A DNA stretch of 64,000 nt from an uncultured Erysipelotrichaceae bacterium. GTDB taxonomy: Bacteria > Bacillota_I > Bacilli_A > RFN20 > CAG-826. The translations under genes and the position numbers were made by a program. Below, piece after piece: positions 4,114 to 30,336 of the stretch (position 1 is its first letter; each line of letters starts with the position of its first letter). Location of the stretch: contig CAMVEL010000006.1 of the NCBI GenBank assembly GCA_947166565.1, forward strand, positions 1 to 64,000, written 5' to 3'. A model generated the notes under the pieces. That model saw nothing but the letters and a program-made list of their open reading frames with translations, made no database searches and was not told the origin of the DNA.

Positions 4114-4179
4114 TTGATTGTCCTCCCATTGTTTCAAAAAAGTGTTCTTACACCAAAACAGTCGCAGATGTTGTTGGCA

Positions 4180-5397: not shown

Positions 5398-5398
5398 A

Positions 5399-6799: not shown

Positions 6800-6801
6800 A
6801 G

Positions 6802-7707: not shown

Positions 7708-7708
7708 A

Positions 7709-8596: not shown

Positions 8597-8604
8597 ACCA
8601 AGTC

Positions 8605-9513: not shown

Positions 9514-9517
9514 ACCA

Positions 9518-13679: not shown

Positions 13680-13681
13680 GT

Positions 13682-14464: not shown

Positions 14465-15678
14465 TTTTCATTTCCCCAATCTGCTTTATATTTTTTTAAC
14501 AACAATTCGCCGATAATATTCTTTATTTCTTCTCGCGCACGGCCAAAAGATAAATTATCAGAAAAATATAGTTTTCTAATTGTATTCCTTCCTTTTTCCA
14601 TTCCGTCATTCCAATTATTTCTTGCGAGGAACTGTAATTGTGCTAACACATCGTCAAATGTGTAGGCTTTGAAACCACATTCATTTTTATCAAAAGGAAG
14701 ATATAGGTCTCTCTCACTAACTAAATATTCCTGTAAATCGTATGCATAAAGAATAATTGGCCTGTTTAACAACAAATAATCAATATAGCAAGCAGAATAA
14801 TCAGATATAAGAGCATCGGCTTGAAAAAGAAGCGTTTGGGTATCTATCATCTCACCAGTTATGTCAAAAATATTAGAATACTCAGAAATATCTTCTTTTT
14901 CATCTTTGTGATAAAAGTGTTTTTTTATAATAAAAACAGCATTGTTCTCTTTACAAAAATCATCAATCTTTTTTAAATTAAAAATTTTCCTAATATTGAT
15001 TGGAACTTTGCCGCAAGACCTTTGGGTTGGCATGTATACAATGGCCCTTTTGCCAGCTTTTATGTCATCAACAATAGAGTTATTACCAATTCTAAGCTTT
15101 TCATCGAAGAAAACGTCAGTTCTCGGTTTGTTGCATTTTACGATTTGCATTTCAGAGAGTTTCCAGCATCTTTCAATGATTCGTTCAACAAATAAACTCG
15201 AAGCTGTCATGTAATAATTTATAAATAGGCAAAGCAATTTAAAAAAACTCTCTGTTTTTTTTGTGGAATCGTTTATTTCGAAACCAGATTGCTTAATTGG
15301 AAAACCGTGATCAAGGTCAAAATATATACATCTTGTTAATAAATATTTGTTAAAGTCTGCAAACTGAACAGAAGAAACTAACATTTTTGCTCTCAATTGT
15401 TTCCAAAGGCCCATTAACGATTTACCATAAACGACGGGTTTACCTTGTTTTTTTAAATCTTCCAAAATAGTTTTATCTAATGTATACCAGAAAACTTTGA
15501 ACTCACTTTTGAGTAAATATTCGTACATATACATAGAACTATCCGCATATTTTTTTCCAAACCACGCAGAAAACAATATTAAATTCTGATCTTTTGGAAT
15601 CACAGCAAGAACTACTTTCATAATGAATATTACGATTCTCTTAGCGTAATGTAGAACATTTCTAAACATTTTGTTCAC
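14461..15678 (-). CDS. CDP-glycerol glycerophosphotransferase family protein (TagB/TagF-like)
   Basis: 405 residues of the PF04464 type. An amphipathic, membrane-associating N-terminus (about residues 1-28) is followed by a GT-B-like core. Recognisable parts are YFDLDHGFPIK (the family usually has WHGTP), IVYMPTQRSCGK, FIIKKHFYHKD, and ISDYSACYIDYLLLNRPIILY, which carries the conserved Ser-Asp-Tyr-Ser. Members move polyol phosphates (glycerol-, ribitol-phosphate) from CDP donors. It suggests a phosphodiester or polyol-phosphate substituent on this glycan. No CDP-glycerol synthase is present in the window. Confidence 0.85.
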   Translation of the reverse strand: MNKMFRNVLHYAKRIVIFIMKVVLAVIPKDQNLILFSAWFGKKYADSSMYMYEYLLKSEFKVFWYTLDKTILEDLKKQGKPVVYGKSLMGLWKQLRAKMLVSSVQFADFNKYLLTRCIYFDLDHGFPIKQSGFEINDSTKKTESFFKLLCLFINYYMTASSLFVERIIERCWKLSEMQIVKCNKPRTDVFFDEKLRIGNNSIVDDIKAGKRAIVYMPTQRSCGKVPINIRKIFNLKKIDDFCKENNAVFIIKKHFYHKDEKEDISEYSNIFDITGEMIDTQTLLFQADALISDYSACYIDYLLLNRPIILYAYDLQEYLVSERDLYLPFDKNECGFKAYTFDDVLAQLQFLARNNWNDGMEKGRNTIRKLYFSDNLSFGRAREEIKNIIGELLLKKYKADWGNEK

Positions 15679-17116
15679 CTTTATTCCTAATTTGCATAAA
15701 TATGGTCATTATCTTTTTTCTAAACAAAATGCCAATAACCAATATCAAAATAACTAACGAATAGCGAATATACCAATAGTTAAACAGCATCATAGCTAAA
15801 CAAGATAAAATGATGACAGAGAACGATATTATCAAAATCAGCTTATTATTGTATACATCATTGCCTTCACATTTTTGTTTGACAATCCTGTTGGAAAAAA
15901 CATAGTGGGCAAAAGCATATATTGCAAAACAAGCAAGCGTTGTAAAACCCGCTGCTAGATATCCATACATTTTTATGAACACATAATTTAGTCCAATATT
16001 AATTAATGCAGTAGCGACTGATGCAATCATAATAAAGTAGTTTTTTTCATAGTAAAATTCCACATTTCCATACATTGCATATAAGAATCTAAAAAAGATA
16101 CTTGCTGCAATAGGCGCAATAATCCAAACACCATCTGCGTATTCTTCGCCGCCCAAAGCCCACATAATCTCAGGAGCAATAATTACAAGCAATAACGAAA
16201 TAATGGCAATGAAAACAACTAAAAAAGCTGAAACACTTTTTATTCTCTCATACTGACTTGACTTCAGATGTTGATACATCCAAGGAGTAAACGTGTTCAT
16301 TATTGCCTCATTAAAAATTATGACTAACGCACCAATTGTATATGCAAGTCCATATATTCCGGCTTCGCTTGTGCCAACCATATTATTAATCATAATTCTG
16401 TCACTTTGATTCAAGATAACGGAGGATAAATAATGAGGTATTAGAGGCAAATTAAAAACTAAGGCCCATTTCCAATACTTTTTGTTAAAAAAAATCTTGC
16501 CCTTTAAAAAAATAAATAGATAAATGAAAACAGCTATTATTATTTGTGAACCAACTGAAGTAACGATTTTAGCAATTCCTTTTTCATTAGACAACAATAC
16601 AGCGGGGACACCTAAACCGGCTGTCAAACAAGAAATAATTATCGTAAGGATTACCAACGTTCGATATTTATACTCAAATCTTTGTTTTGCCGCCCAAAAT
16701 CTAAAAGCGGGAACAAATAATACTTCAACAAACAAAAAGCATGTCATAATAGTGGTCATGCCCGTTAACCCATTAATCCACTCTTGAAATACTAAATATA
16801 GGCAGAACGTTGATAAAGTAATAGTCGTGCACAACCCTTGCATTGATGAAGTAGCAACATCTTTATCATCAGGATACTTAGTTAAAGCGTTATTATAAAC
16901 ACCGTAAAAAAGATTTAGAGTTGCAAAAATTGTGAAAACCTCAACCCAAGAATTATAAACTGTCACCTGCCCATATTGTTCGGTCGACATTAACCTTGTA
17001 AAAATTGGTGTAGTAAGAAAAGCGATTCCCTTTTGCAGCACACTGCAAACAACGAACCATAATGAAGCTTTAAGTGGAACAGGCAATTGCTTATATTTTG
17101 TTATTAGTTTGCTCAT
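15662..17116 (-). CDS. Wzx-like polysaccharide flippase
   Basis: 484 residues with 12-14 predicted hydrophobic segments, of the polysaccharide transporter branch of the MOP superfamily. The N-terminus VPLKASLWFVVCSVLQKGIAF followed by FLTTPIFTRLMSTEQYG is typical. It should flip lipid-linked repeat units across the membrane for polymerisation by the Wzy-like protein encoded at 20,509-21,783. It overlaps the next gene by 17 bases. Confidence 0.92.
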   Translation of the reverse strand: MSKLITKYKQLPVPLKASLWFVVCSVLQKGIAFLTTPIFTRLMSTEQYGQVTVYNSWVEVFTIFATLNLFYGVYNNALTKYPDDKDVATSSMQGLCTTITLSTFCLYLVFQEWINGLTGMTTIMTCFLFVEVLFVPAFRFWAAKQRFEYKYRTLVILTIIISCLTAGLGVPAVLLSNEKGIAKIVTSVGSQIIIAVFIYLFIFLKGKIFFNKKYWKWALVFNLPLIPHYLSSVILNQSDRIMINNMVGTSEAGIYGLAYTIGALVIIFNEAIMNTFTPWMYQHLKSSQYERIKSVSAFLVVFIAIISLLLVIIAPEIMWALGGEEYADGVWIIAPIAASIFFRFLYAMYGNVEFYYEKNYFIMIASVATALINIGLNYVFIKMYGYLAAGFTTLACFAIYAFAHYVFSNRIVKQKCEGNDVYNNKLILIISFSVIILSCLAMMLFNYWYIRYSLVILILVIGILFRKKIMTIFMQIRNKGEQNV

Positions 17117-17147
17117 TTATTTACACACCATTCGATGGTTTTTTTGC

Positions 17148-18173
17148 TCATCTTTGAACTCTTCCGTTTCCGCTACCGTTCATTAAAGTTAGCACATCTT
17201 CAACAGAGCAACGGTTAAAGTCACCCTCTATAGTTTGCTTCAAGCAACTGGCTGCAACCGCAAATTCAATTGCTTGCTGATTGTTCATTTTTGTAATTAA
17301 TCCATAAATAAGGCCAGCAGCAAAGCTATCTCCACCACCAACTCGATCGACCAATTGAATTTCATATTTTTTTGACAGGTAAAAACTCTTACTATCACAC
17401 AGAACGGCGGACCAGCCATTCATGCTGGCAGAATAACTTTCTCTCAATGTAAAAGCTACATACTTGCATCCATATTCTTTTTGGATTTTTTCGGCGATTT
17501 TTTTATATCCATCTATATTTAGATTTGCATTTTCAACATCATTCTCAATTTGGATTCCGAGGGCCATTTGAGCGTCTTCCTCATTGCCGATGCAAACATC
17601 AACATATTCAAGCAAGACTTTCATGGCTTTTTGAGCATTTTCACTTGACCATAATTTCTTTCTATAGTTCAAATCGCAGGAAACGGTAAGCCCCTTAGCT
17701 TTTGCAACTTTGCAAGCTTCTAGTGTAATTTCGAACATACTTTGGGAAAGTGCCGGATCAATTCCGGTAAAATGGAACCAGTCCGCGCCTTCAAATATCG
17801 AATTCCAATCAAAGTCCTTAATGCTTGCTATGGAAATTGCAGAATTCACTCTATCGTATATTATCTTCGATGGGCGTTGCGAGGCACCCTTTTCAAGATA
17901 ATACAATCCCATTCTGCCTTCTCCGCAACAGATTCTTGACGTGTCAACTTTGAATTCGTTTAGCGCTCTTTCCGCTGCGTGACCAACATCATTATTTGGA
18001 AGTTTGGTTATGAAAGCTGAATCGATACCGAAATTTGATAGGGACACGGCAACATTCGCCTCTCCACCACAAAAAGTACAATCCAAAGAACCTCTTTGAA
18101 ATAGTTTGTTATATCCAGGGGCCGACAACCTTAATAACAATTCGCCAAACGTTATTACTCTCATTTTACTCAC
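17148..18173 (-). CDS. PfkB-family sugar kinase (KDG-kinase-like)
   Basis: 341 residues. FGELLLRLSAPGY opens the protein, CGGEANVAVSLSNFG is the substrate-binding glycine turn, and VDRVGGGDSFAAGLIYGL contains the catalytic Asp and anion hole of PfkB kinases. The overall pattern is nearest to 2-keto-3-deoxygluconate kinases. The gene overlaps the aldolase fusion gene by 8 bases and lies close to the KdsB-like cytidylyltransferase gene. It may phosphorylate a ulosonic acid or its aldose precursor. The real substrate is unknown. Confidence 0.88.
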   Translation of the reverse strand: MSKMRVITFGELLLRLSAPGYNKLFQRGSLDCTFCGGEANVAVSLSNFGIDSAFITKLPNNDVGHAAERALNEFKVDTSRICCGEGRMGLYYLEKGASQRPSKIIYDRVNSAISIASIKDFDWNSIFEGADWFHFTGIDPALSQSMFEITLEACKVAKAKGLTVSCDLNYRKKLWSSENAQKAMKVLLEYVDVCIGNEEDAQMALGIQIENDVENANLNIDGYKKIAEKIQKEYGCKYVAFTLRESYSASMNGWSAVLCDSKSFYLSKKYEIQLVDRVGGGDSFAAGLIYGLITKMNNQQAIEFAVAASCLKQTIEGDFNRCSVEDVLTLMNGSGNGRVQR

Positions 18174-19749
18174 CTATTTTTATGTGCACCGGCTTAGTTA
18201 AGAACTCGATGGAGATTTCATTGTTCAGTTCCTTTAGCACCTTATTCATTCCTTCATTCATTTGATCAAGCACTGAGTTTCTGGTTATCCATGCCATACT
18301 ACTATCAGCATAGTTTTCTTTAGGTTCGTGCGAATAGCCGTCAAAACCTGCAAGTAAAACTTTTTTAACCCCGAATGTAATGAGAAGTTTAATGGCCATC
18401 AAACCAGCGTTGTCGTTAACAAACTCTTCACCATTCAAGAGCGATTTATAATCTGTTTGGTAATAAACGCCATCAAAAGGTATATTGGATGTTACAATAC
18501 ATTTTTCTTTTGAAGATTTCTCAAGTTCTTTGAATCTTCTGATATTGCTCAAAAAGATGAAATCAGTTTTTAGGTACTTATAATCAAAGTTCACGCTAAT
18601 CGTCACTGCATTTATCTCTCGGACAAATCGATTAATCGCTTCTTTCTCAAGAGTAGAACTCTTCCCTGGGGCAATCAAAACAACGGGTTTATCCCTAAAA
18701 ATCGCGGTCAATTCTTCCGATCTCGAATTCTGTATTGCTCCTTTTTCCATAAATTGGACATAAAGCGCTTCAATGTAGTTTTTGTCGAATTCAACTTTTT
18801 TGTCCTGCGGCATCATTTCGAATATCTCGTCTATTTCCTCAAATGTTAATGTCTTTTTATCGTCTAAGTATCCAGCATAATTAGGATGAGCATTATGCTT
18901 TGCAGAAAGATAATTTGGCAAAGAATAACCCCAATAGTTTTCATGATGAAATTTAGAAAGAATCGTATCTACAACACGTAATAAAGGCTTGACATTGTAG
19001 CTTTTCTCATAATTTTCATTTAAATACTCAATGAGTAACTCCGTATTCAAGTTGCCGGCTCCTCTGCCCATTCCATAAATTGATGAATCCAAGATAATGT
19101 CTTTGTTTGTTGGCATACCTAAAAGAGTCATGGCATTTGAATATGCGAGTTGCAAGTTATTGTGCGAATGAAATCCAACCTTAATAGATGAATCTAAATT
19201 GTTTTCGATCATATAGAAGAATCGGTTTAGATCCTTTGATTTCATCATTCCAAAGCTATCAACAATATAAAAGGCATATGGTTGCATCTCATTCGCAAGT
19301 CCAATCATTTCGATAAACTCGATGTCTGTATAATTTACCGATACCATCGGTTGTATAAAAACAAGGTATCCTTTTTCTTTGATTTGTTTGCACAGAGCAA
19401 TAGCTTCGTATCTATTCTTTTTATGGAAAGCCAGCCTTATTCCGTCTATGGATGTCCCATCATTCTCTGGCAATTCAGAAAGATTGAACTCACCATAATT
19501 CATCATCGCCACATAGAGCTTTCCTTTTTGTTTTTCTCCAATGACATCTTTAAACTCAGCTACACTATTGAATTTGCTGAAGTCATCACCAAAAGACGCC
19601 TTTTGTGTAATAAAACCACATTCAATGATATCAACATCAGCCTCAACAAGGCTTTTGATTATTTCTTTAATATTCTCATATCCAAAATGCCACTGATTGC
19701 AATACCCGCCATCTCTCAAAGTGCAATCCAAAACCTTAATCTTATTCAT
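18166..19749 (-). CDS. DRE-TIM aldolase fused to a DUF115/GT42-like domain
   Basis: 527 residues in two parts. Residues 1 to about 300 form a DRE-TIM metalloaldolase of the 4-hydroxy-2-oxovalerate aldolase type: KVLDCTLRDGGYCNQW, IIECGFI, the metal site GFHSHNNLQLA, and YGMGRGAGNLNTELL. Family enzymes join pyruvate to an aldehyde, giving a 3-deoxy-2-keto acid. Residues about 340-525 begin KPVVLIAPGKSS and include VSVNF-like and VKKVLLAGFDGYS strands, reminiscent of DUF115 (Maf) and GT42 sialyltransferase folds. Such enzymes use CMP-ulosonic acids, which fits the adjacent cytidylyltransferase. The C-terminal assignment is tentative. Confidence 0.8.
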   Translation of the reverse strand: MNKIKVLDCTLRDGGYCNQWHFGYENIKEIIKSLVEADVDIIECGFITQKASFGDDFSKFNSVAEFKDVIGEKQKGKLYVAMMNYGEFNLSELPENDGTSIDGIRLAFHKKNRYEAIALCKQIKEKGYLVFIQPMVSVNYTDIEFIEMIGLANEMQPYAFYIVDSFGMMKSKDLNRFFYMIENNLDSSIKVGFHSHNNLQLAYSNAMTLLGMPTNKDIILDSSIYGMGRGAGNLNTELLIEYLNENYEKSYNVKPLLRVVDTILSKFHHENYWGYSLPNYLSAKHNAHPNYAGYLDDKKTLTFEEIDEIFEMMPQDKKVEFDKNYIEALYVQFMEKGAIQNSRSEELTAIFRDKPVVLIAPGKSSTLEKEAINRFVREINAVTISVNFDYKYLKTDFIFLSNIRRFKELEKSSKEKCIVTSNIPFDGVYYQTDYKSLLNGEEFVNDNAGLMAIKLLITFGVKKVLLAGFDGYSHEPKENYADSSMAWITRNSVLDQMNEGMNKVLKELNNEISIEFLTKPVHIKIGE

Positions 19750-19769
19750 GTAGCGACCTCACTTCCAAA

Positions 19770-20537
19770 CTATTCAGGAATAACTATTTCCCCACTATCT
19801 ATTTTTTCTTTAACTATTTTTCTAACCTTTTCCAAATCGTTTGGAGTATCCACTGCGACGGTTTCTGACTCAACTTCAATGTATTGAACCTTATAACCAT
19901 TTTCTATGAATCTCAAAATTTCAATATCTTCAATTTCCTCTATCTTTGCCTTGCCATACTTCATTCCATAATCACAGTAAAACTGCAATGCTTCTGGCTT
20001 GAATCCATAAACGCAAACTTGCTTGAAATAATGATAATTGATACTCCCTTTTGGATATGGAGCTGTTGATCGAGTTAGATAGATGCCTATGCCATCTTTG
20101 TTCGTCAAAACCTTAGGGACTGTAAAATTCACGACATCAACAGGGTCTTTAATTTTTGTCATCAAATTAGAAATCTGGAGTTCTGGGTTTGAAAAGAAAG
20201 GCTCGATAGCGGCTTTAATTGTCGATGGTTCAAGCAATGGTTCATCGCCTTGAATATTAACGATTAAATCAGCTTTAATCTTTCTAGCAACCTCTCCGAT
20301 TCTATCCGTGCCAGTTCGATGCGTATCCGCAGTTAAAACGACATTTACACCAAGTTCATTGCATTTATCTACAATGCGTTGATCTTCAGTAGCAACATAC
20401 ACCTCATCCAAATCTTTTACTTTTTTGCATTGCTGATAAACCCACCAAATCATGGGCTTGCCACAAATATCTGCTAATGGTTTGCCTGGAAATCTGCTAC
20501 TTTTGTATCTAGCAGGAATGACGCCTATTATTTTCAT
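19770..20537 (-). CDS. KdsB-like 3-deoxy-ulosonate cytidylyltransferase
   Basis: 255 residues of the CMP-Kdo synthetase type. VIPARYKSSRFPGKPLA at the start, THRTGTDRIGEV, and VNIQGDEPLLEPSTI are KdsB hallmarks; NeuA enzymes differ in these places. It should activate a 3-deoxy-2-ulosonic acid as its CMP sugar. The ATG at 20537 has GGAGG eight bases upstream; the start at 20552 does not. It overlaps the wzy-like gene by 29 bases and precedes the aldolase and PfkB genes. No KdsA, KdsD or KdsC is seen, so the acid must be made another way. Confidence 0.88.
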   Translation of the reverse strand: MKIIGVIPARYKSSRFPGKPLADICGKPMIWWVYQQCKKVKDLDEVYVATEDQRIVDKCNELGVNVVLTADTHRTGTDRIGEVARKIKADLIVNIQGDEPLLEPSTIKAAIEPFFSNPELQISNLMTKIKDPVDVVNFTVPKVLTNKDGIGIYLTRSTAPYPKGSINYHYFKQVCVYGFKPEALQFYCDYGMKYGKAKIEEIEDIEILRFIENGYKVQYIEVESETVAVDTPNDLEKVRKIVKEKIDSGEIVIPE

Positions 20538-21783
20538 AAAATATACCTCCATTTACACTTTTAGAATTAATCGACCCAATCGCATACCAAAAGAGAAAAC
20601 CCGGCACAAGTAGCGAAAGAGTATTTGAACCAACAGAATGTAACAACATAATAAAAATAACTGCTACTTCACAATACTTTTTCTTCTTAAATCCGCTAAT
20701 GATAGCAGTCAAACAAATAATAGCAAAAAGCGAAAGTCCAATAATGCCATTCTCACAAAGGATTTTAATATAATTACCATCACGTACTGTGAACTCTGAA
20801 TACGGCATAGCGTGATGGCCAACACTACCAAGGCCCGATCCGAATAAAAGACTTGGAGTATTTTCTATTGCCGCAATCCAAGTGCCGGTTCTTTCGCTGA
20901 AAGCTGTGTCAAATGACTCTGTTCTAGAAAAAAATCTTTCCAAGTAAACTGACATACTAGAGGAATACATTAAGTAATAACCCAAAACAAAGCAGGCAAC
21001 TATAAATATGCCAAGAAGCACGATTTTATTTGTCAGTCTTTCTTTAACTCTAAACATATAAACTAGGAAGTACACAACAATAACAACAGCACAAACAATA
21101 TAAGAAGATCTTTGGTAGCAAAAAAACACACCCATCAAATTTATTACAAAGTGGACAATAAATGCTTTTTTGTGTCTAATCAAAAACTTATCAAGTGAAA
21201 CGGCAACCGCATAGCAACACAAAATACCAATAATAGTACTATTATAGATTGAACACATTCTACCAGATTGCTCATAAACAACCTCATGAAATCTTCCCGA
21301 ATATGTGGAATATCTGAGAAACTCAATGTAAAACGATGGAGTAGTAAGAAATAATATAATCCCTATAATAGTAACGAATGATGTAATATAGCAAAACCAG
21401 GAATAAACCCTTTCTTTGTTAGAGGACTTTGCCAAATAATAAAAGACAATTGGGACAAAACTCGATAAGGCATCAGAGAAAAAAACAGAAAGAGGTATTT
21501 GGTTATAAGTGTAATGGACTATTGAAAAAATATTTAAAATAATAAAAAGATAGACGAGAATATCCAAACGACTCTTTGATTTGGCAAAAATAGTTTGAAA
21601 TATAACTGGTAAAGATACAAAAATAATGACGAGACCACAAATCACTCCAATAGGGAGATTAAGATAAAACATTCGAATGCAGTAAAACACTGTGCACAAA
21701 AAATATATAAGTGTCGACTTATCGTCTATTATTCTTTTGTTCTTCGTTTTTCTTTTTGTGTTTAAACACATCACTTCATTCAT
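20509..21783 (-). CDS. Wzy-like O-antigen/capsule polymerase
   Basis: 424 residues with about 10-12 hydrophobic segments and one larger loop (residues about 275-330) containing FSERTGTWIAAIEN and LLFGSGLGSVG, the pattern of the Wzy_C/O-antigen ligase family. It probably polymerises lipid-linked repeat units outside the membrane. Flippase and chain-length genes are in the same locus. It overlaps both neighbours. Confidence 0.85.
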   Translation of the reverse strand: MNEVMCLNTKRKTKNKRIIDDKSTLIYFLCTVFYCIRMFYLNLPIGVICGLVIIFVSLPVIFQTIFAKSKSRLDILVYLFIILNIFSIVHYTYNQIPLSVFFSDALSSFVPIVFYYLAKSSNKERVYSWFCYITSFVTIIGIILFLTTPSFYIEFLRYSTYSGRFHEVVYEQSGRMCSIYNSTIIGILCCYAVAVSLDKFLIRHKKAFIVHFVINLMGVFFCYQRSSYIVCAVVIVVYFLVYMFRVKERLTNKIVLLGIFIVACFVLGYYLMYSSSMSVYLERFFSRTESFDTAFSERTGTWIAAIENTPSLLFGSGLGSVGHHAMPYSEFTVRDGNYIKILCENGIIGLSLFAIICLTAIISGFKKKKYCEVAVIFIMLLHSVGSNTLSLLVPGFLFWYAIGSINSKSVNGGIFYENNRRHSC

Positions 21784-22870
21784 TGTTAATAACCTTTTTT
21801 ATCGTATTTAAATACCCATATTTGTTCTCTTCATCTGGTTCTAAGTAGCACCCTTCACCCCACTCATTCCAAGCATTTACAAAAATAAATGAGTTTTCGC
21901 ATGATAAATCATATGTTTTTTTAAAAAAGTCGCAAAACAACGTTGGGCTAGATTTTACATAAATAGATCCTTTGTAGCCCCGTCTTGGAGTATTGTCCCA
22001 CGAAGGAAAAATACCATAATAAACAGGCTTAAGATATTTTTTACGGAAGTTTTTGCTCATTAATTTATACGCTTTATTCGTATCTTCGATTCTTTCAACA
22101 GTTTTCATTTTTTTAAAATGGTTGAAAAATAATCGAAGTGCAATCTTGGCGTTTCTAAGAGTTTTGTCAAAAAAGCGCATGTTATATTTCATAGAATAGG
22201 TCGGTTCAAAATTGTAAAACGCATCAACATGAGATAGTCTGTCTTCAATCAAACCATTGCTGTTGCAAACCACTACATGAAGTCCTGGAAATCCATGTTT
22301 TTTTGCCAACATATCCCAGCACAAAAGCATCTCATCCAACTTCTCAATATTTTTGGAGCGATATATATTAATCATTGGTTTTCCATCGACCCTTATATAC
22401 CTAATATCTTTAAAAAAATCTAAAAAGTAATTGAAGTGCTTCTCCCATTCTGCATAGTCACCATATGTTTGTTCAACCAATGTCTCTTTATCAAGCCCGT
22501 ACCAAGTTCTTGTCCACGACTCATTTGCCCAAACAAAACAAAAATTAATTTCAATTTCTTTATGATCAAGCAAAATTCGTGCAGGTCTCTCCAACATCAT
22601 TTTATCGTTTCCAAACCAATAATGATAAATAGCAAAACCGTATATACCATTTTCCTTAGCGAGCTTGCTTTGCCACATCCAAGTTTCTACCCCTTGATTG
22701 ACCAAGTCATAATAATGATTATTCAACGGAATTTTTGGCTGCTTATGATTTTTATAAAGTGGATGAGCTTTCATTACAGCCGTCCATTCTGTATACCCCT
22801 TCCCCCACCACTTATCATTTTCGGGAGTTTCGTGATATTGAGGAAGGTACAAAGCCAACACTTTTTTCAT
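21776..22870 (-). CDS. WbsX-like glycosyltransferase/GH99-like protein
   Basis: 364 residues of the PF14307 (WbsX) family found in O-antigen and capsule loci. The start VLALYLPQYHETPENDKWWG, the GYTEWTAV, YGFAIYHYWF and NFCFVWANESWTRTW segments, and the late NAWNEWGEGCYLEPD are diagnostic. The fold is a TIM barrel related to GH99; the members are thought to build or trim repeat units but their chemistry is not well established. It overlaps both neighbours by 4-8 bases. Confidence 0.88.
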   Translation of the reverse strand: MKKVLALYLPQYHETPENDKWWGKGYTEWTAVMKAHPLYKNHKQPKIPLNNHYYDLVNQGVETWMWQSKLAKENGIYGFAIYHYWFGNDKMMLERPARILLDHKEIEINFCFVWANESWTRTWYGLDKETLVEQTYGDYAEWEKHFNYFLDFFKDIRYIRVDGKPMINIYRSKNIEKLDEMLLCWDMLAKKHGFPGLHVVVCNSNGLIEDRLSHVDAFYNFEPTYSMKYNMRFFDKTLRNAKIALRLFFNHFKKMKTVERIEDTNKAYKLMSKNFRKKYLKPVYYGIFPSWDNTPRRGYKGSIYVKSSPTLFCDFFKKTYDLSCENSFIFVNAWNEWGEGCYLEPDEENKYGYLNTIKKVINNE

Positions 22871-24231
22871 TTTAACATCTCCTTATTAATTTCCGCTTGA
22901 AGAGAATCTAAATCAAAAACCTTCAAAATAAAAGGGTCTTGCAATGATGGAAATGTATCAAAAATCATTTTATCATTTTCATTAATGATTACAGCAATTG
23001 CTGATGATTTATTGTACTTTGCCTCAACTAGAATAGTTGATTTCCTTGCAACGCAAACAGAGTTAGTTATTGCATAGTTGAAATCATCACAGTATTCAAT
23101 TTGGTCTTGAATCTCTTCGTAGTTATCTTTGCTATCTGCGGGATGCAACTTCAGTAAAATTGGACTTTTTGTAATCTCTAAAATCGATTTAACTATTTTA
23201 ATATTTACAAATGGCTCTCTTGGTTCAGAAAAATAAACAATTTTATGGTCACTATTCCCATTATCTACCGAAAACATCTTATGACAAACATCAGGCGAAT
23301 AAACAAACTTTTCTTCTCGGTAAAAAAAGTTAAGATAATTAGCAGCAGTTTGCGATGTACAATAAAAAATGTCGCCAGTAAAGCAATGGGGGAGAAAAAA
23401 ACCATACTCTATTCCGTGTGGAATACAAATCAACTTACAATTGAATTTGCGACAAACTCTTTCTTGTATTATCGCAAACCTATCTAAATTATCGCCTGTG
23501 TAACAGGTCTTGCCCTCAAAAAAAGAACAAAAACGGTTAAATATTTCTTCGTAGAACGAAGTATGCAAGACTCTTTTCGAGTAAAACCTCAACGAATCAA
23601 TGGCACAGTTTTCCCCATAGACATTAGTCACATAATTTTTTATTTTTTTAATTCGCCGAAATGACTTAAAAAAAGAGACAAACAATAGGCTGACTAATTC
23701 ATTTCTCGAAAAATTAGACAAATATGACACCTTGTTAAAAAAGTTTTCATAAATTTTCTCAACGGTATCATCTTCTTTAAGTGCGCGAATCATCTTAATG
23801 TCTTGTTTTGCTCTAGAGACATAAAACGATTCATACTTCAAATGATTGCTAACAATTGTTTTTCTTTTAATTATTTTTGAAAGTAGAAAAAATAAGGATG
23901 CTATATTGATGAACAAAAATCTTATTCTTACAATAATTTTTTTAAAGAATGAGGCACGCCTTCCAACTACATCTTTTACAATGCTTTGTATTTTTGAATC
24001 GCAATTATAAGAATATATTTTATCGGGGTGGGACCCGGAAAATAATCCACTCAACGCTACAGATTCATGAGCATATTTAATAAACAACTCGTTGATCTCA
24101 TCGATATCTTCAAGCAAATATTTATCCTTATTGTTGGTAATGATGTTTTCAACGTTTTCATTATACAAATCCACTGTACTTATGTCTTTTCCGTCAACGC
24201 TTATATAATCTTTATAAATCGCAATTTTCAT
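22867..24231 (-). CDS. putative GT-B glycosyltransferase with HP and S motifs (sialyltransferase-like)
   Basis: About 454 residues, not closely recognised. The C-terminal half has CIPHGIEYGFFLP, ILLKLHPADSKDNYE and VARKSTILVEAKYN. A Lys-x-His-Pro followed by a Ser-Ser/Thr segment is the pattern of bacterial sialyl- and polysialyltransferases (GT38, GT52 and related), which use CMP sugars. A CMP-ulosonate is predicted in this operon, so this protein is a candidate user. The N-terminal half is basic and helical. ATG at 24231 has a weak GGAA 9 bases upstream; 24240 is the alternative. Confidence 0.6.
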   Translation of the reverse strand: MKIAIYKDYISVDGKDISTVDLYNENVENIITNNKDKYLLEDIDEINELFIKYAHESVALSGLFSGSHPDKIYSYNCDSKIQSIVKDVVGRRASFFKKIIVRIRFLFINIASLFFLLSKIIKRKTIVSNHLKYESFYVSRAKQDIKMIRALKEDDTVEKIYENFFNKVSYLSNFSRNELVSLLFVSFFKSFRRIKKIKNYVTNVYGENCAIDSLRFYSKRVLHTSFYEEIFNRFCSFFEGKTCYTGDNLDRFAIIQERVCRKFNCKLICIPHGIEYGFFLPHCFTGDIFYCTSQTAANYLNFFYREEKFVYSPDVCHKMFSVDNGNSDHKIVYFSEPREPFVNIKIVKSILEITKSPILLKLHPADSKDNYEEIQDQIEYCDDFNYAITNSVCVARKSTILVEAKYNKSSAIAVIINENDKMIFDTFPSLQDPFILKVFDLDSLQAEINKEMLK

Positions 24232-25306
24232 TTTTATCATTTCCGTTCATTTTTATAAAAACAGTTTTCCCGTCATAGTTGTGGACGGATCTAAAATACA
24301 CTAATAGGTATTTGTTTTTTTCTTGCAAAGGAAAGTTAGCATAGCCAAATTGAAAAAGTCCATATGGCAAGCAATCTTTTTTAGCCTTAAAAATAATTTT
24401 TGTATTAGAACCATCGAAACTATAAACACAGACGTCATTACTATTAATGCCTGAGCCTCGTTTTGTGGAGAGCATATACGAGACCATATTTGAATGATCA
24501 TAGTCTGGTTCTACTTCAGTTGAAAAATAACACATGTTACCGATTTTTATTCCATAAATTGATGAACCATTAATGGAACAAATATCAGCGCATAAAGCAT
24601 TTTCTTTGCCAACAATTATCTCACACAATCTGTTTGGCTTATCTGGATAATCAGTGCACGAATATAATTTGTCATTTAAAAAAAACAAATGGCAACATCT
24701 AAACGGGGTTTCCTTCCCGAACAACGGTTTCACTTCCCGAGTCATAAAATCAGCAGACCAAATGTTTGCTGCATCATCATAGTCGCCAGTGAGAATAAAT
24801 ACATTGTCATTATGGCGATCATGAACTATTGAATGAACATGATTTACAGTACCTTCTCCAAAAGTATAAATGCATGACCATTTTTTTCCATTTGAGCTGA
24901 ACAATATCTCCACAGCATGTCTTTGATCATTGTTTGGATACTGTCCAAAATAAAAACCATCTTTACATTTTTTTGATCCGCTAATATATACAATATTTAA
25001 AGGAGGTCTTTCACTTTTTTTAAAATACGTAACGGTATATGTCTTTTCTATCAAATTAATCGAATATAATGCGTTTTTGAAACTAAAAACAAAGATGTTT
25101 TTTGCCAAAACATAAGACCTAATGTCAACCCTTAGTAGCCTTCTAAAAACATTGAATAGACATAATATACGCTGAAAAATGTTCAACTTAAGTCGTATTG
25201 TCATAGTTTCTTTATCAAAAAGCGCATGTACTTTTAGACCTTTTTGATAAATTGACAAATTTGATTGAAACAAAAGATAATGTTTACGCGAAATATAATA
25301 ATCCAT
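24212..25306 (-). CDS. beta-propeller (BNR/sialidase-like) protein of unknown role
   Basis: 364 residues without a signal peptide. Repeating short beta strands and an Asp-box-like ILFSSNGKKWSCIYTF, together with VNHVHSIVHDRHNDNVFILTGDYDDAANIW, indicate a sialidase-type propeller. The catalytic Arg triad and Tyr of true sialidases are not evident. Within a glycan operon it may bind or process the sugar chain. It overlaps the GT-B gene by 20 bases and starts 1 base after the upstream stop, so expression is coupled. I know of no defined function. Confidence 0.5.
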   Translation of the reverse strand: MDYYISRKHYLLFQSNLSIYQKGLKVHALFDKETMTIRLKLNIFQRILCLFNVFRRLLRVDIRSYVLAKNIFVFSFKNALYSINLIEKTYTVTYFKKSERPPLNIVYISGSKKCKDGFYFGQYPNNDQRHAVEILFSSNGKKWSCIYTFGEGTVNHVHSIVHDRHNDNVFILTGDYDDAANIWSADFMTREVKPLFGKETPFRCCHLFFLNDKLYSCTDYPDKPNRLCEIIVGKENALCADICSINGSSIYGIKIGNMCYFSTEVEPDYDHSNMVSYMLSTKRGSGINSNDVCVYSFDGSNTKIIFKAKKDCLPYGLFQFGYANFPLQEKNKYLLVYFRSVHNYDGKTVFIKMNGNDKNENCDL

Positions 25307-25307
25307 G

Positions 25308-26492
25308 TTATTTAGACATATTGTCTAATCCTTTGCGAATTAGATTTTCCTTATCAAAATTTAAATGGTAATAAATTGATGAATTCTCTCCTAATAAATG
25401 GAGATTTTGATCTATGAGAAAAGCTATCGCAGCACATAGTTTTTGAGCATTTCCTATCTCACAGCATAAGCCACATTTTGCTTCTTCAATTATTCTTTTA
25501 GTCTCGCCTGAAGCCGATGCAAGAATAGGCATTCCACACGCCATATAACTTTGAAGCTTAGCAGGAATAGTTTTCTCAAATAAAGGGTTATCCATGAAGG
25601 AAATAAAAGCAGCGTCGCATGCACATAACAATACGGGTATTCTTTCAGCAGGTTGACGATTTATAAAAATGAACTTGTCCTTTACATCCTCTGTTTCTTT
25701 GATTAATTGTTCCTTATATCTACCATCGCCAACTATAACAAAGCAAATGTCATTATTAACAAGTTTTGCTACTTTCGGCAATATGTCCAGCCCTTGAGCA
25801 GTTCCGACATTTCCCGTAAATATAATCTTAAAACGACCATCTTTAGGTATTTCTGGCGGATTAGGATTGTCTACAGGTTTATAAATCTCTTCAGCATATT
25901 GAGGCCAATAGATAACTTTTTCTTTATCCTCTACTCTTTCCTGAATAGCTTTTACAAAACTTGGTGATGTAGCAAATATCTTTGTGCATCTTTTGTAAAT
26001 CTTATCAGTCATCTTTTGATAGTGGTTCAATATATGTTTGTTATGAATTCCACCAACTACTTCCAAGTTCTCAGGCCATAGGTCTTGCACATATAGATAG
26101 TTCGGTATTTTTCTTCTTTTAGAAAACCATTTGCCAATTAACGCCTGAGTCATAGGCGACACTTCAAACGTGAATATTAAATCAGGTTTTAAGCTTGTAA
26201 AAGTTTTCCAAAACCAGCCAGACCAAACAAACGAATAATAATTTAATATTAATCTAATAGATGAATGGCCCCTAGATATGATTGGAATTCGAATAATATC
26301 TATACCTTTCCAGGTGTCTTTTCTTTTTTTGAACCATCCATAGCCTTTATAAAACTTCCCTTCGGGATAATTAGGAATGCCTGTTAGAACAGTTACTTTG
26401 TGTCCTCTTTTGATCCACTCTTGGCATATATCATTAATCCTAAATGGTTCTGGATAGAAATATTGAGATATGACAAGAATGTGTTTACTCAT
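25308..26492 (-). CDS. family 4 glycosyltransferase (WbuB/WcaI-like)
   Basis: 394 residues of GT4. The opening HILVISQYFYPEPFRINDICQEW is typical of WbuB/WcaI enzymes. TGIPNYPEGKFY, LYVQDLWPENLEVVGG, IIFTGNVGTAQGLDILP and FEKTIPAKLQSYMACGMPIL follow, the last including the nucleotide-sugar binding Glu region. It is likely to add the second sugar after the initiating transferase. It overlaps the epimerase gene by 4 bases. Confidence 0.92.
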   Translation of the reverse strand: MSKHILVISQYFYPEPFRINDICQEWIKRGHKVTVLTGIPNYPEGKFYKGYGWFKKRKDTWKGIDIIRIPIISRGHSSIRLILNYYSFVWSGWFWKTFTSLKPDLIFTFEVSPMTQALIGKWFSKRRKIPNYLYVQDLWPENLEVVGGIHNKHILNHYQKMTDKIYKRCTKIFATSPSFVKAIQERVEDKEKVIYWPQYAEEIYKPVDNPNPPEIPKDGRFKIIFTGNVGTAQGLDILPKVAKLVNNDICFVIVGDGRYKEQLIKETEDVKDKFIFINRQPAERIPVLLCACDAAFISFMDNPLFEKTIPAKLQSYMACGMPILASASGETKRIIEEAKCGLCCEIGNAQKLCAAIAFLIDQNLHLLGENSSIYYHLNFDKENLIRKGLDNMSK

Positions 26493-27364
26493 ATTTTTTC
26501 CGTTTCCTTAATGCTTTCTTCCAGACTAAATTTTCTATAATTTGTTTTATATTCGCTCATGGATTGGTCGTAGCTGAGATTACCAAAAGCCTTATTCACC
26601 AAACCAGTAAACAAACTAAATACTTTAAGTAGCCAACCAAATCCTTTTATTAAATGAACCTTTTTTCCATTAACTTCGCCAATCATCTTTACTAATTCGC
26701 TGGTATTTGAATATTCTGCATTCTGCGGCCAAAAGATTCCTTGCTCTTCGTTTTCGATCATCAATCTTACAAACTCGACTAAGTTTCCAATGTAAAGCAT
26801 AGAGCGTTCATTTTTGACATATGGGAAGAATTTCATTTTCTTAGCAAACTTTTCAAGTTGAGGAAAATTGCCTTTGCTTCCTTTGCCATAAATCATAGGC
26901 GGCCTTAATACGCACACCTTAAATGTGTCGTCTTGTAACGGAAGAATGCCAAGCTCTGCTTGAACTTTAGAGTCTCCATAACAATTAGCTGGATTTGTTG
27001 GCGTATCTTTTGTGATGACTTTCTTTTTTCCGATCTTCCCGCTATCGCCATAAACAATGGCAGAAGACATAAAAATAAACTGTCTTACACCATCGGCTTT
27101 TGCTTTCTTTGCGGTTTCGATAGTCAAATCGGTGTTTACACTTCTATAAAGTTTTTCTTTTTCTGCTGATATTTTGCCACTATCACTATGGGCAATTCCC
27201 GCCACGTGATAAACAACATCATATCCAGCAAAACTCTTTTCTCTCCAAGAGCCATCAATCATATCAATTGTATCCACCTGATATTCTTCTGGCCATTGGA
27301 TCATGTATTTTTCAAAGGAAGTGCCAATATACGAATTTGCACCTGTGATTAAGATCTTTTTCAT
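26489..27364 (-). CDS. NAD-dependent epimerase/reductase (WbpV/WreQ-like)
   Basis: 291-residue extended SDR. LITGANSYIGTSFEKYM holds the nucleotide turn, MSSAIVYGDSG the Ser, and NCYGDSKVQAE the Tyr-x3-Lys. Size and pattern resemble WbpV and WreQ, which reduce UDP-4-keto-QuiNAc to UDP-QuiNAc. Such genes often stand next to an initiating transferase and a WbuB-like enzyme, exactly as here. The substrate would come from the 4,6-dehydratase encoded at 33,714-35,576. The assignment to QuiNAc is inference. Confidence 0.8.
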   Translation of the reverse strand: MKKILITGANSYIGTSFEKYMIQWPEEYQVDTIDMIDGSWREKSFAGYDVVYHVAGIAHSDSGKISAEKEKLYRSVNTDLTIETAKKAKADGVRQFIFMSSAIVYGDSGKIGKKKVITKDTPTNPANCYGDSKVQAELGILPLQDDTFKVCVLRPPMIYGKGSKGNFPQLEKFAKKMKFFPYVKNERSMLYIGNLVEFVRLMIENEEQGIFWPQNAEYSNTSELVKMIGEVNGKKVHLIKGFGWLLKVFSLFTGLVNKAFGNLSYDQSMSEYKTNYRKFSLEESIKETEKI

Positions 27365-28005
27365 TTGGCTTCTTCCTGTTCTTTTTTCTCTTTCTCTAAT
27401 TCACCAGTTCCACCTTCAACAACGCCTTCGTGTTTGAATACACTAAATGCAGTTCGAAATAGCAAACCAATGTCGTAGAAAAATCCTCTCTTCTCAACAT
27501 ATTCACCATCAAATTTGGCTTTAACTGGTATTTCTAATTCATCTCTACCGCTGATTTGAGCAAGACCTGTTAAACCAGGCTTTACATCATTTGCGTGGTA
27601 TTTATCTCTCTCAGCAATTAAATCGTCCTGATTCCAAAGAGCTGGTCTAGGACCGACAAAGCTCATCTTTCCGGAAAGGATATTGAATAGCTGAGGAAGC
27701 TCGTCTATTGATGTCTTTCTAATAAAACCGCCAACCTTGGTAATGTGCGATGTCGCATTACCTAGTTGATGGGTTGGTGCGTTTGGATCCGTATCAGTAA
27801 ACATCGAACGGAATTTAAGTATTTTGAATATCTTCTTGTTCTTGCCTATTCGATCTTGTTTAAAGAACACCGGACCTTTTGAGTCTATTTTGATTGCTAT
27901 AGCCACTATCAGCATTGGTAAAGCCAAAATAATAATGGCTAGCAATGAGCAAAATATATCAAAACATCGCTTAAAAAATGAATATATCGGTTTTTTCTTC
28001 ATCAC
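27361..28005 (-). CDS. initiating sugar-phosphate transferase (PglC/WcaJ-type), second copy
   Basis: 214 residues. One membrane-inserting helix (about residues 8-32) is followed by the PglC-type catalytic core: KQDRIGKNKKIFKILKFRSM, TSIDELPQLFNILSGKMSFV and VGPRPALW. It links a sugar phosphate to undecaprenyl phosphate to start the repeat unit. A second, similar enzyme lies at 33,094-33,717 in the upstream part of the locus. It overlaps both neighbours by 4 bases. Confidence 0.93.
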   Translation of the reverse strand: MMKKKPIYSFFKRCFDIFCSLLAIIILALPMLIVAIAIKIDSKGPVFFKQDRIGKNKKIFKILKFRSMFTDTDPNAPTHQLGNATSHITKVGGFIRKTSIDELPQLFNILSGKMSFVGPRPALWNQDDLIAERDKYHANDVKPGLTGLAQISGRDELEIPVKAKFDGEYVEKRGFFYDIGLLFRTAFSVFKHEGVVEGGTGELEKEKKEQEEAK

Positions 28006-28517
28006 TCGCTAAACTCCCAATTATCAGGTTTCGTGACCCTTGTGATCACTTGGCCATAATTTAAATGCATTTTTTCAGGCACTACGGCATCTGCACCAAC
28101 AACGGCGTTACAATCGATGTGGCAGCCTTGTTTGACTACCGCATTATGATTGACCGCCGCTCCTGCGGAGACGATCGTACCCTTCTCGACTTTGGCGTTT
28201 GCATTGATTACAGCCATCGGCTCAACAATACAGCCCAATTCTATCTTCGCTGATGGAGAGACGAACGCTTGAGGACTAATCAAAGTCGGAATCTCAAATC
28301 CCACTTCAACCAATTTTTCGATCCAAGCAAGTCTCGCTTCATTATTCCCAATAGCCACGATTACTTGGTATTCACCAACGAACTTCTTGAATTCTTCAAA
28401 TTTCCCAATTGCAACACTTGAGTTGTCGTCAAGAAAATCTATCGTCGTATATTTGTTTCGTGCCAGTTCTTTGACTAATTGCCCATATTCACCGGCACCC
28501 AATATCAAAAGTTTCAT
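28002..28517 (-). CDS. NeuD/PglD-like sugar O/N-acyltransferase
   Basis: 171 residues. An N-terminal Rossmann-like part (LLILGAGEYGQLVKELAR) and a C-terminal left-handed beta-helix with repeats such as INANAKVEKGTIVSAGAAVN form the NeuD/PglD architecture. The His in VNHNAVV corresponds to the catalytic base of PglD. The ATG at 28517 has AGGAAAGG just upstream. It is the first gene after the long leader, directly before an initiating transferase, but no PglE-type aminotransferase is present to make an amino acceptor. It may therefore act on a hydroxyl. Confidence 0.85.
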   Translation of the reverse strand: MKLLILGAGEYGQLVKELARNKYTTIDFLDDNSSVAIGKFEEFKKFVGEYQVIVAIGNNEARLAWIEKLVEVGFEIPTLISPQAFVSPSAKIELGCIVEPMAVINANAKVEKGTIVSAGAAVNHNAVVKQGCHIDCNAVVGADAVVPEKMHLNYGQVITRVTKPDNWEFSE

Positions 28518-28690
28518 ATGAGCCTTTCCTATTTCTAACTCGCCCTGCATAAATATCCATGAGGGTTTCTAGTTCTATTCTCGATTTGTAGCGGATTCGA
28601 TACGGCGCAACGTTTTTAACATTTCTTTAACATCCAGGGCCTTGAACCCTCGCATTCATTCAGATTTACCACGCTAATTTGGGTTCAAAA

Positions 28691-28729
28691 TGTAACGCCC
28701 TATTGTACAAAAGTTTTGCGTGCGTTACA
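28691..28729. repeat. inverted repeat TGTAACGC / GCGTTACA
   Basis: Perfect 8-bp arms at 28,691-28,698 and 28,722-28,729 with a 23-base loop, inside the leader of the glycan operon. A second pair, GAACCC at 28,644-28,649 and GGGTTC at 28,681-28,686, lies just downstream on the transcript. It could be an RNA element or an operator. Confidence 0.5.
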
Positions 28730-28817
28730 CGCTTTGCAACAGTGGACATGGAAACCTTGCGCTTGTCCGTTTTCAGCTATAAAAAGATAAAAAATCGATT
28801 GGTTCGGGGACTTATAG

Positions 28818-28842
28818 AGGTATTTTTGGTCTAAAAACACCT
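28818..28842. repeat. 10-bp hairpin in glycan-operon leader
   Basis: Arms 28,818-28,827 and 28,833-28,842 pair over 10 bp (one G-U in RNA) around the loop GGTCT. No U-run follows on the minus strand, so it is not a simple terminator. It is a candidate antitermination or pause hairpin. Confidence 0.5.
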
Positions 28843-28876
28843 TGTCAAAAAAACGGAAAAACCGCTAGAACACAAT

Positions 28877-28959
28877 AGGCGTTCATGCAAATCATGTTAT
28901 CAGATGATTTAAGAGTCAATTCGCTTCAATATGATTTGCGTATATCAATAGGAACGCCT
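28877..28959. repeat. 83-bp interrupted palindrome in the leader
   Basis: Outer arms AGGCGTTC (28,877-28,884) and GAACGCCT (28,952-28,959), and inner arms GCAAATCAT (28,887-28,895) and ATGATTTGC (28,931-28,939), are all perfect. One side has a 2-base, the other a 12-base, interruption. As RNA it folds into a long two-part stem with a 35-base loop. As DNA it resembles a miniature inverted-repeat element. No target-site duplication is obvious. Confidence 0.6.
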
Positions 28960-29472
28960 TCAGCTTGACGGAGGACAAATATTTTTGAAAGAGATGCTAT
29001 ATATTTGAACTCCGAAGTCTGTATGGATCCTAAAGAACTGAGGAAGCTCACCAAAGACATCCGTGACGTCGCGCCATTCATCCTCGAACATATCCGCGCC
29101 TTTGAAGGAAACGGTATTGTCTTCCCCGCCTCCCAAAACCACTTCCATGGATATATCCCCTCCACCAATCTCGATCATCATCTCGGTAATCGATTGAAAT
29201 GGATGGATATTCTTAATAAATCAGTTTGACGATAGATCGCATAAACCATCGTCAAAAGAAATCATGCTTGTGTTGATATGAACCGCCCAATCGTTAGATA
29301 AAACCATGGTGGATTCATCTATATTATTAACGGATAAAGCCTTCTCCTCGCTAGAAGCCTTATTCAAGATGGTTCCTTTAGGAGACGATTCGTTAAGTAA
29401 GAACGCGGAAAACGCTCTCAATGTTAGGACCGAAACGTCAATGTTGAAGATTATCGATTAGGTCCTACTTAT

Positions 29473-30006
29473 TCAGTTGGTCTTGGTGACGATATTGACT
29501 CCAACGTCAATTTGGACCTTCCTGTTAAACATCGGAACCTCCACGGTTATTTTCCTTTTATGAAGGTTTTTCTTAATGATTCTGCCTTCGATATCCTTTA
29601 AGGGGCCCGTAAGTATTCTTATGTTCTCTCCTTCAGTCAGTTCAATGTCACTTATCTTGGTGTTTCTATTGTCATCTTTGTTATAAAGGATGTTGATCAT
29701 TCTTTCCTCTTCTTGATTTAAAGGGGTGAAATAATATGTTTCTTTTCCTTGTCTACCAAGCAGCTTAGTAAAGTCTGGCACCCAATATAAATCGAAAAAT
29801 AGCTGTTTGACGTCATCGGTCTCTACGAATACATATCCGGGAAAACACTTCTCAGTATATTCCCTATACTTACAATTGTACTTACGTAAAGTTGTTCTTG
29901 TTGGAGTAAATACATCAAAAGATTCAGATCTATTCGTATTAAAACGATTGATGTCATTGATGACTTTCTCTTCTTCTCCCGTTTTAACTTGAATTACGTA
30001 ATACAT
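29473..30006 (-). CDS. loaP: LoaP/NusG-family transcription antiterminator
   Basis: 177 residues of the specialised NusG class. The NGN domain opens MYYVIQVKTGEEEKV and has KCFPGYVFVETDD; the C-terminal KOW domain has LTEGENIRILTGPLKDIEGRI. LoaP proteins, known in Firmicutes, let RNA polymerase read through terminators across long polysaccharide or antibiotic operons. Start at 30006 is chosen because the conserved domain begins there; a longer frame to 30075 adds 23 unlike residues. It lies just before the 25-kb glycan operon. A housekeeping NusG would be elsewhere, near secE and rplK. Confidence 0.88.
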   Translation of the reverse strand: MYYVIQVKTGEEEKVINDINRFNTNRSESFDVFTPTRTTLRKYNCKYREYTEKCFPGYVFVETDDVKQLFFDLYWVPDFTKLLGRQGKETYYFTPLNQEEERMINILYNKDDNRNTKISDIELTEGENIRILTGPLKDIEGRIIKKNLHKRKITVEVPMFNRKVQIDVGVNIVTKTN

Positions 30007-30188
30007 GTTGCTTCTCTTTTTTTGTTGTATGAAAGACCTTCCGTCATGTGTATATCTACATGGCGGTGACGTCATTAAGCCATTCAGCGTGCCACAGGCT
30101 TCAAGGAAGGGGACTTAAGACGGTTTGGGAAGGCTTTTATTTCGTCAAAAAGACGGGATAATCAGCCTTTCCCTCATAGTTTTTCTTT

Positions 30189-30240
30189 CCTCAAAGGTTC
30201 TTAAGGAATATAAAGAATTATATTCTTTAAGGCCTTGAGG
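30189..30240. repeat. long imperfect hairpin upstream of loaP
   Basis: Arms 30,189-30,213 and 30,218-30,240 pair over about 23 bp with few mismatches and a 4-base loop. It lies in the 330 bases between the membrane protein gene and loaP. The bases after it on the minus strand are A-rich, not U-rich, so it does not look like a terminator. It could be an mRNA stability or antitermination element. The rest of this gap has no gene. Confidence 0.55.
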
Positions 30241-30336
30241 CACCTTAATTATGGACTTATTAAGGGATAATGCAACAAAAATAGAGAATCGATATACAAT
30301 TAAGAGAAGAGAAAAAGCCGATTATATCCCATTAAA

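What the first reader, a model, noticed from the sequence alone, without database searches (positions are those of the whole stretch)
28551..30006. LoaP plus a structured leader predicted to control a 25-kb operon
Seen: a LoaP-type NusG paralogue followed by some 950 non-coding bases with at least four perfect inverted repeats and then 24 closely coupled genes. Known: LoaP recognises an RNA hairpin in the leader and prevents termination across long operons. Inference: one of these hairpins is the LoaP target and the operon is an antitermination regulon.
Basis: partly seen in the sequence, partly recalled or inferred. Interest (0 to 1): 0.7.

Follow-up and report, generated by a model that had tools for sequence, protein, structure and literature searches.

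The report
LoaP's RNA target lies before loaP
In a small uncultured Bacilli-class bacterium, a long sugar-coat operon begins with the antiterminator gene loaP, and the conserved RNA structure that LoaP probably recognises sits just before loaP rather than in the 950-base gap after it; the same kind of RNA precedes loaP genes in many gut Firmicutes and matches no Rfam family in our searches.

Summary
In detail: a LoaP-family gene (29473-30006, minus strand), a 922-base gap with four perfect inverted repeats of at least 8 bp (chance 0.56), then 24 tightly packed polysaccharide genes. The gap is not the conserved leader: it has no homologue in 61 related genomes, no match to either LoaP-leader RNA model and no UNCG-loop hairpin. 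A conserved, strongly covarying RNA of about 95 nt lies on the other side of loaP, in loaP's own 5' leader (30027-30122, minus). A model trained without the window finds it (36.9 bits). Across 279 genomes of the order, the RNA occurs in 16, all with loaP, directly before loaP; none of the 257 loaP-less genomes has it. One relative carries two further copies before a second capsule operon that lacks loaP. A related variant precedes loaP in most of 80 named loci, mainly Erysipelotrichales and Lachnospiraceae. No Rfam family matches at gathering threshold. Best reading: this element recruits LoaP to the loaP-capsule transcript, with loaP as first gene of its own regulon. LoaP binding and antitermination are inferred; identity with the published B. 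velezensis dfn hairpin could not be tested.

The parts
30027..30122 (-). conserved LoaP-leader RNA element (variant of the window's order)
   Evidence: model R2, built without the window, hits 30014-30128(-) at 36.9 bits, E 7.8e-5 over 179 kb; the single-sequence MFE fold gives the comparative architecture; single copy in the genome
30112..30122 (-). 5' arm of outer helix (CGUCUUAAGUC)
   Evidence: pairs with 30070-30081 in the MFE fold; all 8 modelled pairs of this helix show changes on both sides across relatives
30070..30081 (-). 3' arm of outer helix (GGCUUAAuGACG)
30089..30102 (-). nearly invariant core GAAGCC-UGU-GGCAC, a small hairpin with bulged A residues
   Evidence: invariant or nearly invariant columns in 20 leaders
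30041..30066 (-). second hairpin (CCGcCAUGU...ACAUGaCGG)
   Evidence: helix 4 of the counted structure, 91% of cells paired, 5 of 7 pairs with changes on both sides
30027..30040 (-). 3' box AAGGUCUUUCAUAC, partly pairing with GUC after the outer helix, just before the ribosome-binding region
   Evidence: conserved CAU[A/G]C in relatives; corresponds in position to GGCGAAGCAUACC of the Clostridia/Erysipelotrichia variant
29473..30006 (-). loaP, first gene of the unit
   Evidence: NF033641 128.2 bits against cut-off 125; the start is the ATG shared with relatives
28551..29472 (-). structured 922-base gap between loaP and the operon; possible termination checkpoint; not conserved
   Evidence: 4 perfect inverted repeats with arms of at least 8 bp against 0.56 by chance; no homologue in 61 relatives
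28845..28866 (-). weak terminator-like hairpin AGCGG-UUUUU-CCGUU followed by a U tract
   Evidence: terminator-like sites in these regions are not more numerous than in shuffles
3550..28550 (-). 24-gene polysaccharide biosynthesis operon (acetyltransferase, sugar transferase, epimerases, glycosyltransferases, Wzy, Wzx-type flippase, CDP-/NDP-sugar enzymes, Rml genes, MBOAT/AlgX pair)
   Evidence: Pfam and NCBIfam; spacing

Best explanation
The locus is a self-contained LoaP regulon: [leader with the LoaP-linked RNA element, 30027-30122] - loaP - 922-base gap - 24-gene capsule/exopolysaccharide operon, all on the minus strand. The element is transcribed at the head of the transcript and folds into two domains: an outer helix enclosing the invariant core hairpin, then a second hairpin with a conserved 3' box. 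It is bound by LoaP and loads it onto RNA polymerase, which then reads through terminators or pauses in the gap and along the 25-kb operon. Because loaP is itself translated from the head of that transcript, LoaP favours completion of the transcript that encodes it. Shown here: the protein family, the gene order, the existence, conservation and covariation of the element, its restriction to loaP genomes and its recurrence before a loaP-less capsule operon. Inferred: that LoaP binds this element, that transcription is continuous from the element through the operon, and that read-through is the effect.
For: R2, trained on 13 relatives without the window, finds the window's element, and the window's own MFE fold matches the comparative structure. 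Covariation in 24 distinct sequences: 91.8% of cells paired against 75.9% shuffled and at most 51% slid; 74 cells with both sides changed against 21.9; 0 of 500 shuffles. Order-wide: 16 of 279 genomes have the element, all among the 22 loaP genomes, none of the other 257, each directly upstream of loaP. In G208 two further tandem copies lie 72 bp before a second capsule operon (Wzz-like, tyrosine autokinase, Cps4B-like, sugar transferase) with no loaP beside it. A variant of the same plan (R1) precedes loaP in most of 80 named loci with strong covariation. Class-wide it occurs in 12 of 395 genomes: the 11 f20/f25 genomes with LoaP over the cut-off, plus one carrying a phage-borne LoaP-like protein. 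In Sharpea the element sits after loaP, directly before the sugar-transferase gene. B. velezensis LoaP needs a leader RNA hairpin for antitermination in vitro and in vivo (PMC12691694).
Against: No binding or expression data. The models were trained on loaP leaders, so presence in loaP genomes is partly by construction; the informative parts are absence elsewhere, the held-out hits (window, G025, G229) and the copies away from loaP. The window's variant lacks the UNCG loop reported for the B. velezensis hairpin and is not detected by R1, so homology of the two variants rests on shared plan and position plus weak cross-hits. No convincing promoter was found upstream of the element in the window. 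Terminators in gap and operon are not enriched over shuffles.
Confidence: 0.7

Rival explanations
1. One reading: a hairpin in the 922-base gap downstream of loaP is LoaP's RNA target and the gap is the operon's leader.
For: Four perfect inverted repeats beyond chance, folding z -3.1; in Sharpea the LoaP-linked element does lie downstream of loaP, so this order is possible in principle.
Against: No match to either leader model in the gap with filters off; gap not conserved in 61 relatives; no UNCG-loop stem; a matching element already exists upstream of loaP.
Confidence: 0.1
2. The upstream element controls only loaP, for example as an autoregulatory translational or attenuation element, possibly with another ligand, and the polysaccharide operon has its own promoter in the gap.
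For: The element ends 8-20 nt before loaP's start codon, close to the ribosome-binding region; the 922-base gap leaves room for a promoter.
Against: Copies of the same RNA sit before operons whose first gene is not loaP (G208, Sharpea), so loaP expression cannot be its only business; promoter-like sites in the gap are at chance level.
Confidence: 0.15
3. The element is an EAR-like RNA that makes RNA polymerase termination-resistant by itself, and LoaP is only a co-inherited partner.
For: Its position at the head of polysaccharide operons resembles what I recall of the EAR RNA of Bacillus eps operons (own knowledge).
Against: No Rfam family matched in the window or in 20 other loaP loci at gathering threshold, none meaningful below it in the window; strict restriction to loaP genomes.
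Confidence: 0.05

Closest known systems
Bacillus velezensis LoaP with the dfn/mln leader hairpins (PMC12691694)
   Same: LoaP-family protein, long biosynthetic operon, structured leader RNA at the head of the transcript, proposed read-through of intrinsic terminators
   Different: There the described determinant is a small UNCG-type hairpin in the leaders of the dfn and mln polyketide operons; here the element is a two-domain RNA of about 95 nt in loaP's own leader, with a GCC-UGU-GGC core and no UNCG loop, on a polysaccharide operon. Identity of the two RNAs could not be tested (no B. velezensis sequence reached).
UpxY regulators of Bacteroides fragilis capsule operons (described in PMC7819879)
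   Same: NusG paralogue encoded with a capsule operon, acting on the 5' leader upstream of its own gene
   Different: Different NusG subfamily (UpxY 59 bits, below its cut-off of 100, against LoaP 128 bits above its cut-off); the UpxY leaders were not compared here
EAR (eps-associated RNA) of Bacillus
   Same: Structured RNA associated with exopolysaccharide operons and processive antitermination (own knowledge)
   Different: No Rfam match at gathering threshold here; strictly associated with loaP
RfaH with ops/JUMPStart
   Same: NusG paralogue with a leader element on capsule and LPS operons
   Different: RfaH reads a DNA element in the non-template strand; here the conserved thing is a base-paired RNA with compensatory changes

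Membership tests
LoaP family (NusG paralogue) | scores above the curated NF033641 cut-off | tested here: met
   128.2 bits against 125; UpxY, RfaH and NusG models all below their cut-offs
LoaP family (NusG paralogue) | encoded next to a long biosynthetic operon, in addition to a housekeeping NusG | tested here: met
   24 polysaccharide genes downstream; second NusG-family hit on contig 4
LoaP family (NusG paralogue) | RNA-contacting residues E40, R41, I143 of B. velezensis LoaP | not tested
   the B. velezensis sequence was not reached with these tools
LoaP family (NusG paralogue) | specific leader-RNA binding and antitermination activity | not testable with these tools
   needs biochemistry
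dfn-type LoaP hairpin | UNCG tetraloop on a short stem in the leader | tested here: not met
   no U-N-C-G loop closed by 3 or more pairs on the minus strand of 28551-30350
loaP-leader RNA defined here, window's order (model R2) | found by a covariance model trained without the window, directly upstream of loaP | tested here: met
   36.9 bits, E 7.8e-5; single genomic copy
loaP-leader RNA defined here, Clostridia/Erysipelotrichia variant (model R1) | R1 match at the same place | tested here: not met
   no R1 match at 30014-30128; shared plan only; weak cross-hits at the right places for L053 and L134
any Rfam 15 family, including EAR | gathering-threshold match | tested here: not met
   low-threshold scan of 28500-30350 gave chance-level matches only

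The most novel reading that the evidence does not exclude
A widespread, so far undescribed RNA family of about 95-115 nt, with at least two sequence variants, is the recruitment site of LoaP. It sits at the head of loaP-capsule operons across Bacilli and Clostridia, occurs in front of further operons controlled in trans, and is also used by a LoaP-like protein encoded among phage terminase genes.
Probability: 0.45. Interest if true: 0.72.

Novelty: new variant of a known kind. Interest (0 to 1): 0.55.

Why it matters
LoaP is reported to be the only bacterial NusG-like protein known to bind an RNA specifically (PMC12691694), and the study read here characterises its target in one species. A covariance model of the element turns the question 'what does LoaP control?' into a genome search: it picks out loaP operons and also operons elsewhere in the genome, such as the second capsule operon of G208. 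It gives concrete RNAs for binding and reporter tests in gut Firmicutes, where loaP sits on capsule loci. For this locus it moves the experiment to the right place: before loaP, not after it.

Tried and rejected
(1) Rfam at gathering and relaxed thresholds: nothing credible in the window and nothing at gathering threshold in 20 other loaP loci. (2) An H-type pseudoknot (core GUGGC with downstream GUCAU): the same GUC(AU) instead pairs well with the start of the 3' box in the R1 alignment; not kept. (3) R1 on the window: no hit at the element. (4) R3, built with the window included, to unite both variants: only marginal cross-hits. (5) Promoters upstream of the element: clear in some relatives (e.g. 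L049, L048, L100), not in the window; on average no enrichment in the window's order. (6) Terminators between element and loaP: rare (3 of 31 gaps longer than 30 nt). (7) Attempts to reach B. velezensis through genome samples failed, and the primary papers on LoaP and the dfn hairpin are not held. (9) Gap as a decayed gene: no family match for the longer small ORFs, no homologous DNA in relatives.

Full report
Observation. All genes concerned are on the minus strand. The ORF 29473-30075 is a LoaP-family protein (NCBIfam NF033641, 128.2 bits, cut-off 125; NusG, UpxY and RfaH models below their cut-offs). Downstream follow 922 bases without an evident sense gene (28551-29472) and then 24 genes to 3550, mostly overlapping or a few bases apart, for polysaccharide and sugar-nucleotide synthesis and export. 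The four perfect inverted repeats are real: arms of at least 8 bp at 29225-29256, 28887-28939, 28691-28729 and 28642-28688, against 0.56 expected and 0 of 100 shuffles reaching four.

Where the conserved RNA is. I collected 22 genomes with a LoaP relative among 279 genomes of the same order and read the DNA before and after loaP. A motif, G[A/C]AGCC-UGU-GGCAC with satellites, recurs about 90-110 nt before the loaP start codon in nearly all of them, the window included. It sits in an RNA with an outer helix whose sequence changes from species to species while pairing is kept (window UUAAGUC/GGCUUAA, G114 UCUAUC/GAUAGA, G181 UCAUUAU/AUAAUGA), a second hairpin, and a 3' box ending in CAU[A/G]C close to the ribosome-binding site. 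Counted on 24 distinct sequences, 91.8% of cells pair (75.9% shuffled, at most 51% when slid) and 74 cells show changes on both sides (21.9 shuffled), with 0 of 500 shuffles reaching the observed values (that alignment was fitted to the model, which favours the structure). The window's single-sequence minimum-energy fold is this architecture, although its energy alone is unremarkable (z -0.77).

Independent test. Model R2 was built from 13 relatives without the window, G025, G022, G229, G181 or G182. It finds the window's element at 30014-30128(-) with 36.9 bits, E 7.8e-5, and G229, G025 and, weakly, G022, G181 and G182 at the same place. In the window's neighbourhood, with filters off, nothing else exceeds 8.1 bits, and nothing in the 922-base gap exceeds 7.6 bits. 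The gap has no homologue in 61 related genomes. So the gap is structured but is not the conserved leader.

Link to LoaP. Over 279 genomes of the order, R2 hits 16, all among the 22 with loaP and none of the 257 without; each has a hit directly before loaP. Because the model was trained on loaP leaders, the informative parts are the absence elsewhere, the held-out hits, and the two extra copies in G208. These stand in tandem 72 bp before a second capsule operon (chain-length determinant, tyrosine autokinase, Cps4B-like protein, sugar transferase), about 34 kb from the loaP locus on the same contig. An RNA shared by loaP's own leader and by a capsule operon without loaP is what a LoaP recruitment site should look like, and it argues against an element that serves only loaP expression.

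A wider family. A scan of named genomes gave 80 LoaP loci. Most carry, before loaP, [helix]AAUCGUCGC-NNN-GYCGCGUU[helix], then GGUCAU, a hairpin, and AUGGCGAAGCAUACC. On 36 aligned sequences RNAalifold finds the core helix with 22 sequences changed on both sides at one pair; over the whole structure 85.1% of cells pair against 73.2% shuffled and at most 46% slid, with 148 both-side cells against 54.8. Model R1 hits about 60 of the 80 loci and, class-wide, 12 of 395 genomes: the 11 genomes of two families with LoaP over the cut-off, plus G474, where a LoaP-like protein lies among phage genes. In 26 named loaP genomes it gives 36 hits in 24, most just before a loaP gene and a few on contigs without a loaP match. 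In Sharpea the element is after loaP, directly before the sugar-transferase gene. R1 does not detect the window's variant. The two variants share plan and position and give weak cross-hits at the right places, so common descent is likely but not shown statistically. No Rfam family matches at gathering threshold (relaxed scan of the window).

Mechanism. LoaP of B. velezensis binds a leader hairpin and lets polymerase pass terminators by opposing NusA (PMC12691694). By analogy, here the element at the head of the transcript would load LoaP, made from the first gene of the same transcript, and the polymerase would then pass the structured gap and the 25-kb operon. The layout (target, regulator, capsule operon) resembles that described for UpxY in Bacteroides, which prevents termination in the leader upstream of its own gene (PMC7819879). 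What the gap does is open; its one terminator-like hairpin (28845-28866) is weak and not beyond chance.

Limits. No expression or binding data; many of the genomes are draft assemblies; no promoter was found before the element in the window. The published UNCG hairpin could not be compared because neither the primary papers nor the genome was reachable. A literal UNCG-loop stem is absent from 28551-30350. It remains possible that the published hairpin is the core of R1; the element would then be an extension of a known one rather than new.

Verdict. Observation confirmed; interpretation partly supported.

Noticed in passing
L195:1004-1614 (genome G474): A LoaP-like NusG paralogue (NF033641 96 bits, below cut-off) lies just before a phage terminase large-subunit gene, with an R1 element (44.8 bits) overlapping its 3' end: a phage or prophage apparently using the LoaP RNA. 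Distant NusG-like relatives occur in three unannotated gut phage records (MT836860, MT835475, MT835795).
   Followed up: partly
L200:2439-2717 (genome G208): Two tandem copies of the leader RNA 72 bp before a capsule operon that has no loaP beside it; no other tandem pair this close was seen.
   Followed up: partly
L065:2020-2127 and L065:3206-3314 (minus): Two R1 elements about 1.2 kb apart on the same strand, one just before loaP and one further upstream; what lies between was not identified.
   Followed up: no
window 29005-29229 and 29307-29462, plus strand: Two small ORFs with protein-like composition inside the 'non-coding' gap, antisense to the operon; the longer one has no Pfam or NCBIfam match.
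   Followed up: partly
window 30165-30240, minus strand: A long imperfect palindrome (CCTCAAGG..TTAAAGAATATAATTCTTTATATTC..CCTTTGAGG) between the upstream gene and the leader RNA, shared in part with G025.
   Followed up: no
genome G638 (locus L134): Seven LoaP genes but one R1 element, suggesting LoaP subfamilies with other, unrecognised RNA targets.
   Followed up: no
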